Positions 6,432-24,311 of a DNA stretch of 64,000 nt are shown piece by piece. The notes under the pieces are model-generated. The model had not been told where the DNA came from. It did not search any database and was given only the letters and a program-made list of their open reading frames with translations. This DNA is from Flavobacterium sp. SCGC AAA160-P02 (GTDB lineage: Bacteria > Bacteroidota > Bacteroidia > Flavobacteriales > Flavobacteriaceae). The position numbers and the translations under genes are program-made. The DNA lies in assembly GCA_000383355.1 (NCBI GenBank), contig KB911090.1:13502-77501 (forward strand), in the 5' to 3' direction. Each line of letters starts with the position of its first letter. Positions within the stretch are counted from its first letter, which is position 1.

Positions 6432-6989
6432 TTATTTAGTTTGTTTTTTGTTGTGAATTATCTTTTTTTTAGCATCAATTTTTTTAAATATTTCTTTAAT
6501 CAGCTCAACACCAATACTTTTACATTCTTGAATGCTTAAAGACAATTTATCTATATTTCTAACAACTACTGGTATTGAAATATACATAAATTGATGATTG
6601 TCTTTAGGTGTCATAATGATGACAATACCATCTACACAGCCATCTTTTAATCTATCTACACATGTTATCTCCCCATCTTTATAAGAAGAATACTGTTCTA
6701 TTAGAACTTTAGAACCTTTATTATAAGCAAATTCCTGTATGTAATGTAACATATTACAATATACAAGATTATTAATTTCTGGAACAATTACAGCTATTGT
6801 ATTTGTTTTTCTCGATTGTAAACTTAAGGCAGCGTTATTAGGTATGTAATCATATGCTATGGCTAAATCTTTAATTTTATTTTTTGTTATTAAACTTACA
6901 TCACGTCTGTTTTTTAATGCTTTAGAGGCTGTAGAAACAGAAACTCCTGCCATAAATGCTAAATCTTTTAATCTTATGCTAGTTCTCAT
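6432..6989 (-). CDS. LacI-type regulator with shortened effector domain
   Basis: A 185-residue protein starting with a clear LacI helix-turn-helix and hinge (residues 5-60; VSVSTASKALKN, then YIPNNAALSLQ). It continues with the first lobe of the periplasmic-binding-protein-like domain (TNTIAVIVPEI to about residue 150). It then passes directly into a segment resembling the extreme C-terminus of the family (KSIGVELIKEIFKKI) and ends. LacI proteins are normally about 330-345 residues, so roughly 150 central residues, including most of the ligand cleft, are missing without loss of frame. It may still bind an operator but is unlikely to sense a sugar normally. It lies between an SSS symporter gene (14-base gap) and the DUF4212-symporter pair. 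Confidence 0.75.
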   Translation of the reverse strand: MRTSIRLKDLAFMAGVSVSTASKALKNRRDVSLITKNKIKDLAIAYDYIPNNAALSLQSRKTNTIAVIVPEINNLVYCNMLHYIQEFAYNKGSKVLIEQYSSYKDGEITCVDRLKDGCVDGIVIIMTPKDNHQFMYISIPVVVRNIDKLSLSIQECKSIGVELIKEIFKKIDAKKKIIHNKKQTK

Positions 6990-15542: not shown

Positions 15543-16691
15543 TTATTTAATATTATTGAAAAGAGTATTAAGTAATTCTTGATTTTGATCTAAACTATAC
15601 TCCCAAAACATAGCTCCACCAAGTCTGTTTTTTTTAATATATGACACTTTTTGTTCAATTTCTTTTGGTGTTTCCCATGATACAAAAATACTATCTGAGG
15701 CGCTCCATAAATATGAAGCTTTAGCTGAACTATCGTAAGATTTTATATAATCACCTGATGATATTTTCTGTAAAATATCCCAATAAGGAACAATAATACC
15801 AGTAGTCATAGAGGTTTGATAAAGGCCTTCATTTTCTGTTTTAACTTTCTCCCAATATCTGCCATAAAATGGGATCCCCATAATTAACTTATTTGAGGGA
15901 ACACCAGCGTTGATATGTCGAATAATTGCTTCATGACCACTATTCCCTTTAAATTTTTCTTTATTTGATGGGTATAAGTTAGCATGATGACCCGTTTGAT
16001 AATACCAACCATGGTAAAAATCATAACACATCACATTAATAAAATCTAAATATTTATGAGCATTTTTAAGATCTGTGTTATCAATATAGGCTTGATCTGC
16101 TCCTGTGGCTATTGTAAGTAAATAATGTTTCTTATCTATTGCCCCCTGTTTCTCTAATTCATTTCTAACTTCCTCTAAAAGAAGATTGAAATTTTCTTTA
16201 TCTGAAGGTCTAAAATCATTGTCTTCTCCTCTTTGTCCAGGAAATTCCCAATCTAAATCTACCCCATCAAAGCCATGTTTTTTCATGAGTTTAACACTGC
16301 TTTTTGCAAATTTTATTCTGCTTTCTTTATATGCAGAAGTATGTGAAAAATTATTAGACCATACCCAGCCTCCAATTGAATAAAGTATTTTTAATGTTGG
16401 ATTAATTTTTTTGAGTGCTATTAATTTTGAAATTTTTATTGAGTCTGTTTTTAACTCAAACTTTGGTTCTCCTTCTATAATATTTGCAAATGCATAATTA
16501 ATATGTGTTAATTTATTGGCATCAACTAATGAGGGGTCAAAATCCTCATAACCTGCAACGTACCCAATTATTTTTAAGTCTAAATTAGAGTTATTTTGAA
16601 TTTTACTTTCTTTCAAACAGCTAAAAAAAAGCATACTAAAGCAGATAGAAATAATTAATTTTATTGATAGTTTACTGTTTTTGACAATCAT
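15543..16691 (-). CDS. GH18 chitinase-like lipoprotein
   Basis: A 382-residue lipoprotein (lipobox FFSC, C25) with a complete GH18 (beta/alpha)8 domain. Visible motifs are the substrate-site block YSIGGWVW (104-111), the catalytic DGVDLDWE at 142-149 with acid E149, and VMCYDFYHGW later in the barrel. The WEFPG ending of the active-site motif is chitinase-like, although GH18 also includes endo-beta-N-acetylglucosaminidases that cut the N-glycan core. It is 10 bases from the GH130 gene and upstream of SusCD. A surface or periplasmic enzyme that cuts beside GlcNAc fits this context; which linkage it cuts is not settled. Confidence 0.9.
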   Translation of the reverse strand: MIVKNSKLSIKLIISICFSMLFFSCLKESKIQNNSNLDLKIIGYVAGYEDFDPSLVDANKLTHINYAFANIIEGEPKFELKTDSIKISKLIALKKINPTLKILYSIGGWVWSNNFSHTSAYKESRIKFAKSSVKLMKKHGFDGVDLDWEFPGQRGEDNDFRPSDKENFNLLLEEVRNELEKQGAIDKKHYLLTIATGADQAYIDNTDLKNAHKYLDFINVMCYDFYHGWYYQTGHHANLYPSNKEKFKGNSGHEAIIRHINAGVPSNKLIMGIPFYGRYWEKVKTENEGLYQTSMTTGIIVPYWDILQKISSGDYIKSYDSSAKASYLWSASDSIFVSWETPKEIEQKVSYIKKNRLGGAMFWEYSLDQNQELLNTLFNNIK

Positions 16692-16701
16692 AACTTCTAA
16701 T

Positions 16702-17685
16702 TTAAAGACTATTTTCTTTGGTGAATTTAATCACTTCACTTAAGTGTCCAAAGGCTATGGCTACTACTGTATCTGCTGCGCCATAATATATTGCTAATTT
16801 ATCTTGTTCTATGTCATGAAGAGCTGCACAAGGAAATACCACATTAGGAACATCACCTACCATTTCGTATTGTTCTGCAGGCCCCAACAAATAAGGTTGC
16901 GTTCGATATTTTACAATATCTGGTTTGTGTTCGTCTAGAAGAGCAGTTCCCATGGCGTATCTAAATCCGTTGCAAGTATTTATGACTCCATGATAAATCA
17001 TTAACCAACCTTCGTTTGTTAATATAGGTATGGGCCCTGCACCAATTTTTGTACATTGCCAAGCGCTATCTTCAAAAGGAGTTGCTTTCATAACACATCT
17101 GTGTTCTCCCCAATACTTCATATCTGGGCTGTAACTAATATAAATATCTCCAAAAGGAGTATGTCCATTATCACTAGGACGACTTAACATGGCATATTTC
17201 CCATTTATTTTTTTTGGAAATAAAACTCCATTTCTATTAAAGGGAAGAAAAGCATTTTCACATTGGAAAAAATCTTTAAAATCAAATGTATATCCTATTC
17301 CTATTGTAGGTCCATGGTAGCCATTGCACCAAGTAATCCAATACCTGTCTTCAATAAATACAACCCTTGGATCATATTTGTAGTCAGAATCTATCATTTT
17401 GGTGTTTCCTGCTTTCATTTTTATGGGATGATGATTAATTTTCCAATTAATACCATCTTCACTAAATCCAGCAAAAATATTCATTTGAACTGCTTTATTA
17501 TCACATCTAAAAACACCAGCAAATCCATTTTTGAATGACACTACAGCACTATTAAAAATACTATTAGATGAAGGTATATCGTATCTATTAATAATAGGAT
17601 TGGATGAATAACGCCATAAAACATCATTACATGTGTCAGGTTTATTTTGCCAAGGTATACTTGAACTATCTTTTAGTAAACTCAT
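16702..17685 (-). CDS. GH130 beta-1,4-mannosyl-GlcNAc phosphorylase-like enzyme
   Basis: A 327-residue cytoplasmic protein without a signal peptide. It closely follows the GH130 subfamily-2 pattern: [28 protein letters not shown], the catalytic YDPRV block with proton donor D105, [35 protein letters not shown] and IYYGAADTV. Characterised members of this subfamily phosphorolyse beta-1,4-mannosyl-GlcNAc or related beta-mannosides to mannose-1-phosphate plus the acceptor sugar. An SSS symporter gene lies 4 bases upstream and the GH18 gene 10 bases downstream, so symporter and phosphorylase probably handle the same disaccharide. This gene is the strongest clue that the locus targets a mannose/GlcNAc glycan. 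Confidence 0.92.
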
Positions 17686-17689
17686 ATTT

Positions 17690-19567
17690 TTAATTCGTGA
17701 TTTTTCTGACTTTATCGAACCAAGTAAATTTAAGGATTATTGAAGTTATTACAAACACAATTAAAGATATTAATGCTTTTGGGTAATCTCTAATAACAAA
17801 ATAAATTGGCATCACTATCATACTTGATTGCCAAACAATACCAATTGCACAATTTAACATATCTTTCCAAAAGTCAGTATTTTTTTCAATGGCATTATCT
17901 TCTGCTTTTAAAGTATCATATACTGGGTTCCACCAACCCCAAGGATGCACATTCTTATAAAATGATTTAAGTACCGTGATTTCTGTTGGCTTGCTTAAAA
18001 AAGTACCTAATAAGGATCCTAACAATGAGAATCCAAATATGATTGGAAATAAATAAATAGCATGAATGTGAGCTAATTCATAAAGTAAGGTTCCTTCGGA
18101 AAAATTATCTTTATTCTGATCTAATATAAATTGTAAACTAGCAGAAATCAATCCTGCCATCATTCCCCAAAAATAGCCCCAGCCATTAAAACGCCACCAT
18201 ATCCATTTTAAGAGGTTTGCAGCGACATACCCTCCAAAGAGTGCTGATGTTATCCAAAGTGTTAAAGAATTAATAGAATTGGCGAAAAAACCCATTGAAA
18301 CACCTAAACCAACAATAAAAAATGATGCCAAATGACTAGCTTTAATATAATGTTTATCGGTAGCGTTGGGTGAAATATATTTTTTATAAAGATCATTTAC
18401 TAAATACGCAGGTCCTGCATTTACAAATGCTGAAAAGGTAGACATAAAAGCAGCTAACAATCCTGCTAATAATAATCCCTTAATCCCAACAGGCACATGA
18501 AAGTTAATCACTTTGGGTAATAATACTTCAAGATCATGCCCGTTTAAACCAGGGTCTGCATTTAATATTGGCGCCAAGATTACCAGGGCTATTACCACCA
18601 CACCACCAATTAATAAATACCTAGGAATAAATAATATCAAATTTGTAAATCCCGCCATATATGCTGCCTCTTTTACATTTTTTGTAGATAAAATACGTTG
18701 CATATCAAAACTTGGAGTTGGCCCAGCTATACTTGCAAAAAAACCTTTAAACAAAGACATCCCTACAAAAGCACCAAACATTTTAAAACCCTCTTTGTCT
18801 ATTAAATCATTAAAAGCGTTGTAGTTCTCGTTCCAATGTGTAGTTAGTTCCCATTCAAAGAAAATATTTTTCCATTCTTCTGTAATTACTGAAGAAATTT
18901 CAAGATCACTGAAAGCATAAAAGCTATATGCAGCAACAAGAACACCTGCAATAACCATGATAATATATTGGATTACTTCTGTAGCAACCACAGAATACAT
19001 ACCACCCTTAATTGTATAAAATGTTGTTAAAGTAATAATAATAAGCGCATAGGATTGAGCTGATGTTAATACTTCTGATCCCCCTAATAATAGGGTCAAG
19101 TCCCATGGAAGTATTATTGTCATAAACTTTCCAACACCCTCAAAAAAGTAAGCTATAAAACCTATAGCGGCAACAATAGCAAATACAGCCACTATGATAT
19201 GAGAGGCTCTTCCTGCTTTGTTATCACCAAAGCGTGTTAGTATCCATTCTGATCCTGTCATAATATTAGATCTTCGAATCCAAACGGCTAGAAACATCAT
19301 AATAAATATTTGGTTCCAAATAGGCCACAACCACATAAACATAAAGCTTTTTAAACCATATAAGAAAAGAATACCTACCATCCAGGCTGTCCCTGAAACA
19401 TCAAACATTCCAGAGCCATTACTTAAGCCTAAGTAATACCAATTAATAGTTTTTCCTCCTAAAAAATAGGAATCCAATCCTTTAGATGCCTTTTTAGAAA
19501 CTCTCATTCCTACAAAGAGTGTTATCAAAACATAAATGACAATTATTAATATATCTATAGTGTTCAT
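17690..19567 (-). CDS. Sodium:solute symporter paired with GH130
   Basis: A 625-residue SSS-family inner-membrane transporter. It has the N-terminal [20 protein letters not shown] block, many transmembrane segments, and an [21 protein letters not shown] segment in the sodium-site region. It ends with a loop ([15 protein letters not shown]) and two more hydrophobic segments. It is 4 bases ahead of the GH130 phosphorylase gene and 15 bases after the GH92 remnant. The neighbouring cytoplasmic phosphorylase suggests import of Man-beta-1,4-GlcNAc or a similar beta-mannoside; this is inference from gene order. Confidence 0.85.
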
Positions 19568-19582
19568 ATGATTAAAATCTTA

Positions 19583-20017
19583 TTAAATACCCCAGCTTTT
19601 ATTTGGGATTTCTCCCATAACAAAATGAAGTATTCCTTCGTTCATCAATTCGTTATGGGTGATGAATGTTCTGTTTAATTCTTCACCATTTAAGGTTACT
19701 GATTGTATATAAATATTTTTAGTTGAAGCATTTTTAACGCTTACTGAAGAAAGCCCTAATTTGACTTCCAATTTTGCTTCATTTAAATCATTAAAATAAA
19801 GCTGTGCTGAAGTTTTAATTCCAGTAACATGATTTTCATTAATGTATTTTTCGTCTGATACTAGATCAAATTCTTTAATAGATTTTGAGAACTTCGCTAC
19901 AAAAAAAACTTTCTGATTTTTAGCCCATCCTTTGCTATATCTAAATCCAGATATAGTAAACTTATCTACTATTTTTAGTTGTGAAAGTTCTGTATTATCC
20001 CAATAGCAAAACATCAA
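19583..20017 (-). pseudogene. GH92 alpha-mannosidase remnant with catalytic domain deleted
   Basis: The 144-residue frame is a fusion of two distant parts of a GH92 alpha-mannosidase. Residues about 8-88 match the end of the N-terminal beta-sandwich domain (ISGFRYSKGWAKNQ, FFVAKFSKSI, VKLGLSSVSVKNAS). Residues about 89-144 match the very C-terminus (IYIQSVTLNGEELNRTFI, then GEIPNKSWG). A normal GH92 is about 720-780 residues, so both the N-terminus and the whole catalytic (alpha/alpha)6 domain with its calcium site are missing, while the reading frame is kept. No signal peptide is present. It is the first gene of the minus-strand SSS-GH130-GH18-SusCD run and faces the LytS gene. Enzymatic activity is not possible; it is probably a relic. 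Confidence 0.75.
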
Positions 20018-20163
20018 AAAAAATATATTATATTTATATTAGCTTTTTTAATATTCATTATTTATTCTTATTTATTCTAGTAAAAATTGAAAAAAATAAC
20101 TGTTTAACGAATAAAATTAGACGGATGACTACTGAGTTCAGCTAAACGTTAAAAAACTTAAAT

Positions 20164-21213
20164 ATGAAAACAAAAAAAATATTCAAACTTAGTCGAAGAC
20201 ATCATATTCTTTTTTGGTTTTTTTACTTTTTACTAAACACACTTCGTTGGGGAAATTATTTTGATGATTACTTGTATTCACTTAAAACGAATGTTATTGG
20301 TTTTCCAGTACACATGATTTTGGTTTACTTAAATATTTTTATTTTAATGCCTAGGCTTGTTTTCAAAAGAAAATATTTTTCATATATCATTGCTCTTATT
20401 GCTTCTCTTTTGTTGATGGTTTTTATTAAATTTAATCTTACCTATTATCTAGTAAGTGAAAATATATGGCCAGAAGGACCAGCAGTTATAAATGATTTCA
20501 CCTTTAGTTATGCAATTGATATGATGATAGGAGAATTGTATGTAACTACCTTTGTAACTGCTATAAAAATTACGATGGATTGGCTGGAAGAACAGAAAAG
20601 GACGGCAGCATTAGAAAAAATGCAATCTGATACAGAACTCAAGTTTTTGAGGACTCAAATTTCACCTCATTTCTTTTTTAACACCCTTAATAATATTTAT
20701 TCCTTAGCTATAGAAAAGTCAGAAAAAACACCAAAAATTATACTTAAACTTTCAGAATTAATGCGTTATCTATTGTACGAAACAAGAACAAAAAGACAGC
20801 GTTTAGAAAAAGAGATCATCTGTATTCAAAATTATCTTGAATTAGAGTCAATAAGATATGGTAAACTGCTAGATATAGACATGAAAATAAGTGGAGATAT
20901 AATGAATAAGAAAATTGCGCCTATATTATTGCTTTCTTTTGTTGAAAATGCTTTTAAACATGGTGCAAATAAAAATATAGGAAATATAAAAATTGATATA
21001 GATTTTAAAATAATAGAAAATTTTCTTTATTTTACTATTTCAAACCCGGTCCCCAAAGCAATTAAAAACAAACAAATTATAAAACATCCTGGGGGCATTG
21101 GGCTGAAAAATGTTAAAAAAAGACTAGCTCTAGGATACAACCCTGATGAATACGAATTAAATATTGAAAGCAAAGACAAGGTATTTATTGTTAATCTCAA
21201 AATAAAAGTATAA
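20164..21213 (+). CDS. LytS-type sensor histidine kinase
   Basis: A 349-residue inner-membrane kinase with about four hydrophobic segments in residues 15-135. A short coiled linker precedes the His_kinase domain (PF06580 type), with phosphoacceptor H169 in TQISPHFFFNTLNN. The ATPase part has VENAFKHG (N box) and GGIGLKNVKKRL (G box). Its stop overlaps the start of the next gene (TAATG), so the two are translationally coupled. It is divergent from the GH92 remnant across a 146-base gap and may regulate the glycan locus, but nothing in the sequence proves this. Confidence 0.92.
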   Translation: MKTKKIFKLSRRHHILFWFFYFLLNTLRWGNYFDDYLYSLKTNVIGFPVHMILVYLNIFILMPRLVFKRKYFSYIIALIASLLLMVFIKFNLTYYLVSENIWPEGPAVINDFTFSYAIDMMIGELYVTTFVTAIKITMDWLEEQKRTAALEKMQSDTELKFLRTQISPHFFFNTLNNIYSLAIEKSEKTPKIILKLSELMRYLLYETRTKRQRLEKEIICIQNYLELESIRYGKLLDIDMKISGDIMNKKIAPILLLSFVENAFKHGANKNIGNIKIDIDFKIIENFLYFTISNPVPKAIKNKQIIKHPGGIGLKNVKKRLALGYNPDEYELNIESKDKVFIVNLKIKV

Positions 21214-21914
21214 TGAAAATAAGCTGTTTAATAATTGATGACGAACCCTTGGCTATTAATGTTATAAAAAAACACATAGAAGAAGTTGAAAATATAAATA
21301 TTATTGAAAGTTTTAACAGTGCAATTAATGCATTAAACTTCTTAAAAAGTAATACTGTAGATTTAATCTTTTTAGATATAAATATGCCTTTGCTAGATGG
21401 CTTAGATTTTATTAAAAGTTTAGATAAAAAGCCATTAATAATAATTACTTCAGCTTATGACGAATATGCAATAAAAACCTATGAATTAGAGGTCCTAGAT
21501 TATTTAATGAAACCAATATCATTTCCTAGGTTTTTAAAAGCTATCAATAGAGCTTTTAAAGAGCTTGACGCTCATTCAAACTTAAATGTAAAAGTCTCCA
21601 AAAGAGCCCATATTTTCATTAAAGTAGATAAAAAGAAAATGCAAAAAATCTATCTAGATGAAATCTTAATTATTGAGTCTTTAAGAGATTATTTAAAAAT
21701 AACTACGCTTACAAACAAATACATTATTCATAGTACTTTAAGTAATTTTACTGAAAAGTTACCGTCAAACAATTTTATACGAATACATAGATCATTCACA
21801 ATTGCTATAGATAAAATTGAGGTAGTTCAAGGAAATAGTGTAGAAATTGATGGTGTTAAATATGTGATAGGTAGATCTTATATTGAGCTTGTAAAAAAAA
21901 GAATATTACAATAA
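21213..21914 (+). CDS. LytTR-family response regulator
   Basis: A 233-residue cytoplasmic response regulator. The receiver domain (1-120) has acidic residues D9-D10, phosphoacceptor D55 in FLDINMP and K100 in DYLMKP. A LytTR DNA-binding domain follows (about 130-230; KKKMQKIYLDEILIIESLRD, then FIRIHRSFTI). It overlaps the kinase gene by one base and is its cognate partner. LytTR regulators bind direct repeats upstream of targets; I could not identify such a pair in the adjacent intergenic region. Confidence 0.93.
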   Translation: MKISCLIIDDEPLAINVIKKHIEEVENINIIESFNSAINALNFLKSNTVDLIFLDINMPLLDGLDFIKSLDKKPLIIITSAYDEYAIKTYELEVLDYLMKPISFPRFLKAINRAFKELDAHSNLNVKVSKRAHIFIKVDKKKMQKIYLDEILIIESLRDYLKITTLTNKYIIHSTLSNFTEKLPSNNFIRIHRSFTIAIDKIEVVQGNSVEIDGVKYVIGRSYIELVKKRILQ

Positions 21915-22388: not shown

Positions 22389-24311
22389 TTAAAAATGATA
22401 GCGCTTAAAGGCTTCTATTGCAGCATAATCTGCTAATCCAAAATCATTATATTTTACAGCTGTTAAACGGTTTCTATCTTCAACTCTCACCCAAAATTCT
22501 CTAGAATCATCTCCCTGATACATCACACCGTCTTTTTGAGATTGATGATAAAAAATAGCATGTCTTTTTCTTAATACTTGATCTGGACTCAAAGGCACAG
22601 CCATATCAATTTCATACGATTCCCACTCATGCCAAGCTCCACGATATAACCAAACCCAGCAGTCGTTCATGTATTTTTTATCTTTTACTTCTTTCAATGC
22701 TATAAAAAGGGCATCTAAACAAACCTTGTGTGTTCCGTGAGGGTCTGCCAGATCTCCAGCAGCATAAATTTGATGAGGTTTTATTGTATCAATTAAACTT
22801 GTCATTAAATGAATATCTTTATTTGATAAATTGCCTTTTTTAATAGTACCTGTCTCATAAAAAGGAAGGTTTAAGAAATGTACATTTTTATCCGAAAGCC
22901 CCAAATACCTTGTGGCAGCAAGAGATTCTCTTTTTCTAATTGTCCTTTTTAAGTGTCTTACTTCCAAAGAATCTATAGCATCATTTCTTTTTTTATTTTT
23001 TAAAAAATCAATAATTTCACTAACCTTTTTAGAATCTGAATTTATTTCTTTAGAAACTTCTGCAAATTTTAATGCTTCCTCATCTGAAACAGCAATATTC
23101 CCAGAGGTTTGATAGGCTACATGAACTTCATGACCTTGCCTTAATAATCTATCAAAAGTACCTCCCATAGAAATTACATCATCATCTGGATGTGGACTAA
23201 AAATAATGACCCTTTTTTTTGCGGGATTAGCTCTTTCTGGTCTTTTAGCATCGTCTGCAAAAGGCTTACCCCCTGGCCAACCAGTAATTGTATTTTGTAG
23301 TTTATTAAACATTTTTATGTTTAAATCATAAGCAGCTCCTTCTTGCATTAAAAGACCAGACATCCCGTTAGTGTTGTAATCTTTGTCTGTTAACTTTAAA
23401 ATAGGCTTTTTTAATAAATTACTCAACCAAACAACTGCTTGTAACTTTAAACTAGTATCCCAAATACATGATCTAACTAACCAAGGAGTTTTAACACGTG
23501 TTAGTTTAGCGGAAGCTTCTTTATCCATAACAAAAGTAGTATTGTTATGATGTTGTAAATATGTTGCAGGTACATTTGCACTAATTTCTCCTTCTATTGT
23601 TTTTTTAATTATGATAGTTTTATTTGCCCCCCAAGCAAGTAGCACAATTCTCTTAGCATTTTTAACTGTTCCAATGCCCATTGTTATTGCTTTTCTAGGA
23701 ACATTTTCAATCCCAAAAAAAGAAGGTGCAGCATCAATTCTGGTTATATGGTCTAAAGTAATTATTCTAGTTTCAGAATTAAAATGAGAACCTGGCTCAT
23801 TAAAACCTATATGGCCAGTTCTTCCAATTCCTAATAGTTGAAAATCTAGGCCGCCTACCTTTTTAATTTTCATTTCATAATCGATACAGTACTGAAGAAT
23901 ATTTTTTGCAGTTACAGTTCCATCAGGAATATTGATGTTTTCTGGTAAAATATCTACATGATTAAAAAGATGTTCATGCATAAAATAAAAATAACTTTGA
24001 ATGTTACTTTTATCCATTCCGTAATATTCATCTAAATTAAAGGTAATTACATTTTTAAAACTTAACTCTTCTTCTCTGTGCATTCTAACAAGTTCCTCGT
24101 AAACTTTTACTGGAGAAGAGCCTGTTGCCAATCCTAAAACACAAATAGCTTTTTCTTGTTGTTTTTTTCTAATTAATTGTGCTATTTCTTGAGCAACTAA
24201 AACAGAAGCTTCTTGAGATGATTGATAGGTAATATTATGAATTTTCTCAAACCTAGTGTCTTCAAATTTACCTATGGATTGATAGATTGTTTTTTTTATG
24301 TCAGACATCAT
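22389..24311 (-). CDS. nagB: Glucosamine-6-phosphate deaminase with C-terminal PIG-L-like domain
   Basis: A 640-residue cytoplasmic protein of the long Bacteroidota NagB type. Residues about 25-290 are the deaminase domain, with LATGSSP (61-67), FNLDEYYG (91-98, catalytic-type D94) and GIGRTGHIGFNEPG (161-174, H167). Residues about 365-600 are a PIG-L/LmbE-like deacetylase domain with metal motif HPDDD (374-378). NagB converts glucosamine-6-phosphate into fructose-6-phosphate and ammonia. The position equivalent to E. coli Asp141 is threonine (T165), so the active-site triad differs from the enteric enzyme. It links GlcNAc released by the glycan locus to glycolysis. No NagA gene is visible in the window. 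Confidence 0.9.
   Translation of the reverse strand: MMSDIKKTIYQSIGKFEDTRFEKIHNITYQSSQEASVLVAQEIAQLIRKKQQEKAICVLGLATGSSPVKVYEELVRMHREEELSFKNVITFNLDEYYGMDKSNIQSYFYFMHEHLFNHVDILPENINIPDGTVTAKNILQYCIDYEMKIKKVGGLDFQLLGIGRTGHIGFNEPGSHFNSETRIITLDHITRIDAAPSFFGIENVPRKAITMGIGTVKNAKRIVLLAWGANKTIIIKKTIEGEISANVPATYLQHHNNTTFVMDKEASAKLTRVKTPWLVRSCIWDTSLKLQAVVWLSNLLKKPILKLTDKDYNTNGMSGLLMQEGAAYDLNIKMFNKLQNTITGWPGGKPFADDAKRPERANPAKKRVIIFSPHPDDDVISMGGTFDRLLRQGHEVHVAYQTSGNIAVSDEEALKFAEVSKEINSDSKKVSEIIDFLKNKKRNDAIDSLEVRHLKRTIRKRESLAATRYLGLSDKNVHFLNLPFYETGTIKKGNLSNKDIHLMTSLIDTIKPHQIYAAGDLADPHGTHKVCLDALFIALKEVKDKKYMNDCWVWLYRGAWHEWESYEIDMAVPLSPDQVLRKRHAIFYHQSQKDGVMYQGDDSREFWVRVEDRNRLTAVKYNDFGLADYAAIEAFKRYHF

What the first reader, a model, noticed from the sequence alone, without database searches (positions are those of the whole stretch)
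19583..20017. In-frame GH92 fossil: N-terminal strand block fused to extreme C-terminus
The protein reads as GH92 up to VKLGLSSVSVKNAS and then immediately as the GH92 terminus (IYIQSVTLNGEELNRTFI). The catalytic domain, about 400 residues by family comparison, has been removed without breaking the frame, and the N-terminus is also gone. The remaining frame is intact at the head of an operon. It shows that the locus formerly included an alpha-mannosidase, which supports a mannose-containing substrate.
Basis: partly seen in the sequence, partly recalled or inferred. Interest (0 to 1): 0.62.

Follow-up and report, generated by a model that had tools for sequence, protein, structure and literature searches.

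The report
Decaying alpha-mannosidase gene heading an operon
A marine flavobacterium carries the remains of a sugar-cutting (alpha-mannosidase) gene that has lost its working core, and several relatives have lost the same gene in other ways while keeping its neighbours; it is an ordinary gene remnant with an unusually clear history.

Summary
Minus-strand frame 20017-19583 is the end of the GH92 N-terminal domain (Pfam 150-236 of 236) joined in frame to the extreme C-terminus (419-464 of 464). Against the intact congener G161 it keeps residues ~184-275 and ~697-747; ~420 residues between are gone. One correction: native start and signal-peptide codons survive upstream (20058-20017) in another frame, so there are two deletions plus a frame break.

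The slot is native: in 64 of 80 named loci a full-length GH92 lies directly upstream of the same transporter gene. Six genomes of the genus, the window's included, hold remnants there instead, of at least four shapes; two of these six (G125, G129) rest on likeness to a third. On an rpoB tree the four relic carriers tested need three changes, two of them forced. No other genome searched shows this exact form. Resolvable junctions lie at or near repeats of 5-7 bases. The C piece is 95% identical to G161, the N piece 58%, which suggests a recombined allele.

Verdict: a real, probably young pseudogene in a mannose/N-glycan-type PUL. Repeated loss of the lead GH92 is the interesting part.

The parts
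19583..20017 (-).
20014..20058 (-). Native GH92 start codon (20058-20056) and signal-peptide codons, ending at TGA 20016-20014, which overlaps the ATG (20014-20012) of the fossil frame
   Evidence: Read from the sequence; likeness to the start of the intact G161 protein printed; the same stretch in the relics of G014, G125, G129, G130, G156
19727..20002 (-). N piece, residues 184-275 of the G161 GH92
   Evidence: tblastn, 59% identity over 92 residues
19727..19735 (-). Junction of the large deletion, with AAATG shared by both flanks in 3 of 5 relatives printed
   Evidence: shared in G161, G098, G148; not in G021, G059
19583..19726 (-). C piece, about residues 699-747 of the G161 GH92, with the stop codon
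19533..19732 (-). Stretch of raised identity to G161 (176 of 198 bases), from the junction to about codon 12 of the transporter gene; possible imported tract
17690..19567 (-). Sodium:solute symporter (SSF) gene, intact, 625 aa, starting 15 bases after the fossil's stop
16702..17685 (-). GH130 gene, nearest solved relative UhgbMP
15543..16691 (-). GH18 gene, nearest solved relatives chitinases
20100..20122 (-). Spacer element GTCTAATTTTATTCGTTAAACAG, alike in intact G161 and in relic loci; its GTCTAA core was found in each of the 15 spacers printed
   Evidence: no shuffled control for this motif
20164..21914 (+). Divergent histidine kinase and LytTR response regulator genes

Best explanation
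This is a pseudogene: what is left of the first gene of an operon (GH92, SSF transporter, GH130, here followed by GH18) in a mannose/N-glycan-type polysaccharide utilization locus of a Polaribacter-like flavobacterium. The full gene coded a secreted GH92 exo-alpha-mannosidase. Two internal deletions removed about residues 19-180 and 276-696, and the signal-peptide frame no longer reads into the rest. The large deletion probably ran between short direct repeats; it stayed in frame because both copies lie in the same codon phase. The two ends survive because they hold the operon's control region and the approach to the transporter start, which are still needed. Deletions with other breakpoints have hit the same gene in relatives. 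Shown: identity, slot, missing parts, remnants elsewhere. Inferred: the repeat mechanism in the window, why the ends survive, absence of function.
For: Domain pieces in order. Same slot filled by full-length GH92 in 13 genus genomes plus one contig-cut and in 64 of 80 named loci. Other remnants in the slot: G156 (residues 3-67 plus the last 13, in frame, in a locus whose transporter DNA is 99% identical to that of intact G161), G130 (2-70 plus tail, out of frame), G014/G125/G129 (faint), Flavobacterium sp. JAS (124-195 with stops). Relic label: three changes on the rpoB tree, two forced by well supported branches. Both flanks of the large deletion carry AAATG in the same phase in 3 of 5 relatives printed; a GH92 of another locus in the one-contig genome G021 lost exactly 1725 bases between AAAAAAG copies. 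Native start is out of frame.
Against: The two pieces still read as constrained coding sequence (pN/pS about 0.05 and 0.36), though this mostly reflects time before the loss. AAATG is not shared by the two flanks in G021 and G059, and the true parent sequence is unknown. The first deletion could not be placed. No reads, no expression data.
Confidence: 0.88

Rival explanations
1. Deletion and arrival of a foreign C-terminal piece were one event: DNA from a G161-like relative recombined by homology in the transporter start and joined at a few matching bases inside GH92, replacing the middle of the gene (homology-facilitated illegitimate recombination, HFIR). This is a special case of the best explanation, not its opposite.
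For: C piece 95% identical to G161 (other orthologues 47-65%), N piece 58% (others 48-55%). Where G161 differs from the majority the window shares its residue at 13 of 14 C sites but 16 of 41 N sites, Fisher p 0.0005. Raised DNA identity starts at the junction and ends near codon 12 of the transporter gene. The transporter is 80% identical to that of the sister G125 while its neighbours are 90-97% (SusC 97, SusD 96, GH130 95, GH18 91, HK 90; RR 87), so exchange has touched this operon. 3-10 bp micro-homology is usual in HFIR (passages of PMC3240628).
Against: Windows of equally low synonymous difference (pS 0.36-0.41) occur elsewhere in the operon between the same two genomes, so the DNA signal alone is weak. 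An exchange first and a deletion later explains the data as well. Direction of exchange unknown.
Confidence: 0.25
2. The remnant is still useful: translated by re-start at the overlapping TGA/ATG, it carries ribosomes up to the transporter start, or is a small protein of its own.
For: Frame open to 15 bases before the transporter; TGA of the native-start peptide overlaps the ATG of the fossil frame; the G156 remnant is likewise in frame and the G130 frame ends near the transporter start.
Against: No second genome with this form in the searches made. No plus-strand frame of 60 codons remains at this place in L099 (G014) and L170 (G125), though the transporter is intact there. Neutral decay leaves such a frame open in 60% of simulated runs at 0.02 substitutions per site and 27% at 0.05.
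Confidence: 0.06
3. The short form is an assembly artefact (collapse or chimera of the host's GH92 with that of a co-occurring relative).
For: The genome is a fragmented assembly (80 contigs, 88.8% complete), and the ancestry change lies at the junction.
Against: A chimera needs two switch points within about 200 bases and differs from G161 at 22 of 198 sites. Comparable losses appear in other assemblies, among them a named strain (L158) and, for another GH92, the one-contig genome G021; sisters G125 and G129 also lack the gene.
Confidence: 0.05

Closest known systems
Glycoside hydrolase family 92 (exo-alpha-mannosidases, e.g. PDB 6f8z, 2wvy)
   Same: Both pieces align in order with the family; intact orthologues fill the same slot.
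   Different: Nearly all of the catalytic domain and most of the N-terminal domain are missing; it cannot be a working member.
Sulfatase-free GH92-rich PUL of Polaribacter, Formosa, Aurantivirga and NS5 (Krueger et al. 2019, PMC6794258, passages seen)
   Same: GH130, GH18, CE2-type, GH3 and a CBM9-domain protein in the scanned part of the window.
   Different: The GH92 at the head of the operon is a remnant; no GH20 among the 20 proteins scanned.
Bacterial pseudogenes made by deletion between short direct repeats (general knowledge, recalled)
   Same: Joins at or near repeats of 5-7 bases in the cases that could be resolved.
   Different: Several remnants of one gene at one slot, from a very recent in-frame one (G156) to strongly faded ones.

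Membership tests
GH92 alpha-mannosidase (working member) | N-terminal beta-sandwich domain complete | tested here: not met
   Only 150-236 of 236 profile positions, plus a signal-peptide start in another frame
GH92 alpha-mannosidase (working member) | Catalytic domain with its acid and base residues | tested here: not met
   Only 419-464 of 464 profile positions remain. That the catalytic residues lie before this stretch is recalled, from no call
Remnant (pseudogene) of GH92 | Homology to separate parts of an intact orthologue in the same genomic slot | tested here: met
Remnant (pseudogene) of GH92 | No expression or function | not testable with these tools
   Needs RNA, protein or removal data
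Sulfatase-free GH92-rich PUL | GH130 and GH18 beside GH92 genes, SusC/SusD pair | tested here: inconclusive
   GH130 and GH18 met; GH92 only as a remnant; SusC/SusD named from my reading of the sequence and from likeness among relatives, no family search made
Sulfatase-free GH92-rich PUL | No sulfatase genes | tested here: inconclusive
   None among 20 proteins scanned between 62 and 34352; the rest of the window was not scanned
Homology-facilitated illegitimate recombination | Foreign DNA joined by homology on one side and by micro-homology on the other, with a resident deletion | tested here: inconclusive
   Ancestry change at the junction, p 0.0005; AAATG in 3 of 5 relatives; parent and donor unknown

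The most novel reading that the evidence does not exclude
Loss of the lead GH92 is a repeated, selected step in this clade: lineages with small genomes drop the costly secreted mannosidase but keep the importer and the GH130 phosphorylase, and so live on partly trimmed mannose-containing glycans released by neighbours. The ends of the gene persist as the leader of the streamlined operon, and in the window the loss came about by taking up DNA from another Polaribacter.
Probability: 0.2. Interest if true: 0.55.

Novelty: new member of a known kind. Interest (0 to 1): 0.36.

Why it matters
As a single case it is an ordinary pseudogene. With the relics in relatives it gives a staged series (intact, fresh in-frame deletion in a nearly identical locus, the window, strongly faded, gone) of one gene lost more than once from a locus whose transporter and GH130 stay. 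That makes a question about marine glycan use testable: whether such bacteria have become importers of sugars cut by others. It also warns that family hits alone can mislead: both pieces of this dead gene pass Pfam's cut-offs and could be counted as a working mannosidase.

Tried and rejected
Chance match: rejected, two Pfam hits over cut-off in the right order.

A conserved short protein: no second genome with this form (one search is a sample of the family at E <= 1e-18, so a diverged form could be missed). The in-frame short form of G021 matched over its full length only in itself among 166 genus genomes (whose list is cut at the weak end).

In-frame joins as a sign of selection: three of four joins (window large deletion, G156, G021) are in frame, G130 is not; by hand, chance of three or more at one third each is about 0.11. 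Dropped as evidence.

Import shown by DNA alone: weak, because windows of equally low pS occur in GH130, GH18 and later in the transporter gene. Kept only as a rival, on the residue-sharing test.

Arenibacter: 9 of the 80 survey loci, all Arenibacter, lack GH92 upstream and no remnant in them exceeded the shuffled control. L100 has the transporter in another context, without the kinase, and no remnant. The C-terminal trace of G125 alone (22.7 bits) lies within the shuffled range (best 24.3 of 260), that of G014 (25.8) just above; I count G125 and G129 because their spacers plainly resemble that of G014 and share the signal-peptide stretch.

Structure prediction was not run: a single-sequence model of a remnant would not decide anything.

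Literature: 'Polaribacter, GH92, gene loss' gave one paper (PMC9213526, listing only); 'GH92, pseudogene' gave 14 (listing only). From listings I cannot say whether this loss is in print.

Full report
WHAT IS THERE. The frame at window 20017-19583 on the minus strand is open for 144 codons. Pfam places residues 6-90 at the end of the GH92 N-terminal domain (150-236 of 236, E 1.5e-13) and residues 91-136 at the end of the catalytic domain (419-464 of 464, E 2.2e-9), both above the curated cut-offs. NCBIfam's GH92 model matches in two stretches, well below its full-length cut-off. Solved GH92 structures match the pieces apart, e.g. 6f8z_A at 163-250 and 673-718.

BREAKPOINTS. Against full-length orthologues the N piece corresponds to residues 184-275 and the C piece to about 697-747 of the G161 protein (748 aa). 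About 420 residues between are missing. So the gene has lost a first block (about 19-180) and a second (about 276-696), and its start is out of frame with the rest. The TGA overlaps the ATG of the fossil frame, which would allow re-start of translation; that is a possibility read from the sequence, not shown.

THE SLOT. The window lies in genome G000 (2.54 Mb, 80 contigs, 88.8% complete), which has one other GH92, in a 997-codon frame on another contig. In gene maps of relatives a full-length GH92 stands directly before the symporter, which is followed by GH130, in 13 genus genomes (G161, G148, G167, G098, G066, G021, G013, G026, G111, G118, G121, G065, G059); in G115 GH92 is cut by the contig end. 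The divergent kinase/regulator pair is next to GH92 in 10 of these 13; G148 and G167 have other genes there, and the G161 contig begins 266 bases before GH92. In G066 the symporter itself is split in two frames. In a survey of the 80 best named loci found with the transporter, 64 have a full-length GH92 directly upstream, one (L157) is cut by its contig, two have remnants (L108, L174) and 13 gave no hit at E 1e-3: nine Arenibacter, L099, L100, L158, L170. By equal contig lengths L099, L108, L119, L123, L128, L157, L170 and L174 are the records behind G014, G130, G161, G118, G059, G115, G125 and G156, so the two surveys overlap. Titles of these genus records mostly name Polaribacter, Flavobacterium or a higher rank, one Tenacibaculum; 'Polaribacter-like' rests on that.

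OTHER REMNANTS. G156 keeps residues 3-67 (98% identical to G161) joined in frame to the last 13; its transporter gene is 99% identical in DNA to that of G161, whose GH92 is whole, so this loss is very recent. G130 keeps residues 2-70 and a few tail codons, out of frame. G014, G125 and G129 keep the signal-peptide stretch and faint C-terminal traces in spacers of about 427 bases; no plus-strand frame of 60 codons is left there in the records of G014 and G125 (G129 not tested for this). Flavobacterium sp. JAS (L158) keeps residues about 124-195 with several stops, 45.1 bits against a best of 24.3 in 260 shuffled controls; G014 scores 25.8 and G125 22.7, so the latter is not significant alone. 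Nine Arenibacter loci and L100 show nothing above the control. An rpoB tree of 20 genomes (G014 had no match and G129 only a fragment, so both are missing) joins G000 with G125 (100/100) and G156 with intact G161 (97/97), and leaves G130 elsewhere; the relic label (4 rows) needs three changes, two forced by well supported branches, and shuffled labels need 3.7 on average, so the label is not clustered. The window's genome and its sister have different remnants; whether they share a first loss is open.

HOW THE DELETIONS AROSE. Both flanks of the window's large deletion carry AAATG in the same codon phase in 3 of 5 relatives printed (G161, G098, G148; not G021, G059), which would give an in-frame result without selection. 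The G130 junction reads as a join at ATGGGA, present on both sides in G161; the G156 junction lies two to three bases from the same repeat. In the one-contig genome G021 a GH92 of another locus has a 200-codon in-frame remnant; against intact G015 the two halves overlap by AAAAAAG and exactly 1725 bases (575 codons) are missing. The window's first deletion could not be placed exactly. No null for repeats of this length in such AT-rich DNA was run.

MIXED ANCESTRY. The C piece is 95% identical to G161 over 43 residues (pS 0.37, pN 0.019), other orthologues 47-65%; the N piece is 58% (pS 0.71, pN 0.25), others 48-55%. Where G161 differs from the majority, the window shares its residue at 13 of 14 C sites and 16 of 41 N sites (Fisher p 0.0005). 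DNA identity to G161 is 8 of 25 just before the junction, 20-24 of 25 per block from there to about codon 12 of the transporter, then 13 and 20 of 25. Against this, 43-codon windows with pS of 0.36-0.41 occur elsewhere in the operon. The transporter is only 80% identical to that of sister G125, while SusC, SusD, GH130, GH18 and HK are 97, 96, 95, 91 and 90% and RR 87%, so pieces of this operon have been exchanged. An exchange with a G161-like allele is likely; a single event (HFIR, passages of PMC3240628) is possible.

SELECTION. A neutral simulation with an assumed AT bias leaves the frame open in 60% of runs at 0.02 substitutions per site, 27% at 0.05 and 8% at 0.1: the loss is probably recent. 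The more faded relics have no such frame while their transporter is intact, so a lasting need for the frame is not supported. The motif GTCTAA lies in the spacer of each of the 15 loci I printed, intact, relic or without GH92 (not all loci were included and no control was run). It fits the view that the ends remain because the operon still needs its control region; this is inference.

CONTEXT. Neighbours scanned include GH130 (nearest to UhgbMP), GH18 (nearest to chitinases), CE2-type and other SGNH esterases, further symporters, a glucosamine-6-phosphate isomerase/PIG-L fusion, GH3 and a CBM9-domain protein. PMC6794258 (passages) describes sulfatase-free GH92-rich PULs with GH92, GH130, GH20, GH18, often CE2, sometimes GH3, GH2 or a CBM9 gene, in Polaribacter and others; PMC6298971 (passages) suggests alpha-mannose-rich N-glycoproteins as a target of GH92-rich PULs. 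All six relic genomes have at least one other GH92 match: in G014 only partial frames, and in G156 one of its two has two stops in its N-terminal part. So mannose removal need not be lost altogether. Relic genomes are 1.9-2.5 Mb as assembled, most intact ones 2.9-4.7 Mb, but intact G161, G148 and G115 are small too and several are incomplete, so a link to genome size is only suggested.

VERDICT. The observation and its main interpretation are right. It is a pseudogene, ordinary in kind, made more interesting by repeated loss of the same gene.

Noticed in passing
L038:4617-5216 (G021, C1:3770616-3771215): In a one-contig genome, another GH92 is reduced in frame to its N-terminal part and last ~65 residues (200 codons); the join is at a 7-base repeat when compared with intact G015.
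   Followed up: yes
L037:4986-5288 (G011, C60): A 101-codon frame with only the C-terminus of a GH92, between a 983-codon GH92 frame and a 339-codon gene alike to the one behind the L038 remnant.
   Followed up: partly
L209:738-974 (G065, C1): A 79-codon frame with only the N-terminus of a GH92 in a one-contig genome, before unrelated frames.
   Followed up: no
window 6432-6989 (-): A LacI-type regulator gene ends after 185 codons with only its DNA-binding domain recognised by Pfam; the same place in sister G125 (L089) is more broken.
   Followed up: partly
window 17690-19567 (-) against L089 (G125): The transporter is 80% identical to that of the sister genome while most neighbours are 90-97%, a sign of exchange inside the operon.
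   Followed up: partly
window 22389-24311 (-): One protein joins a glucosamine-6-phosphate isomerase domain to a PIG-L (de-N-acetylase) domain.
   Followed up: no
L065:9396-11272 (G066): The transporter gene is split into two overlapping frames although GH92 before it is whole.
   Followed up: no
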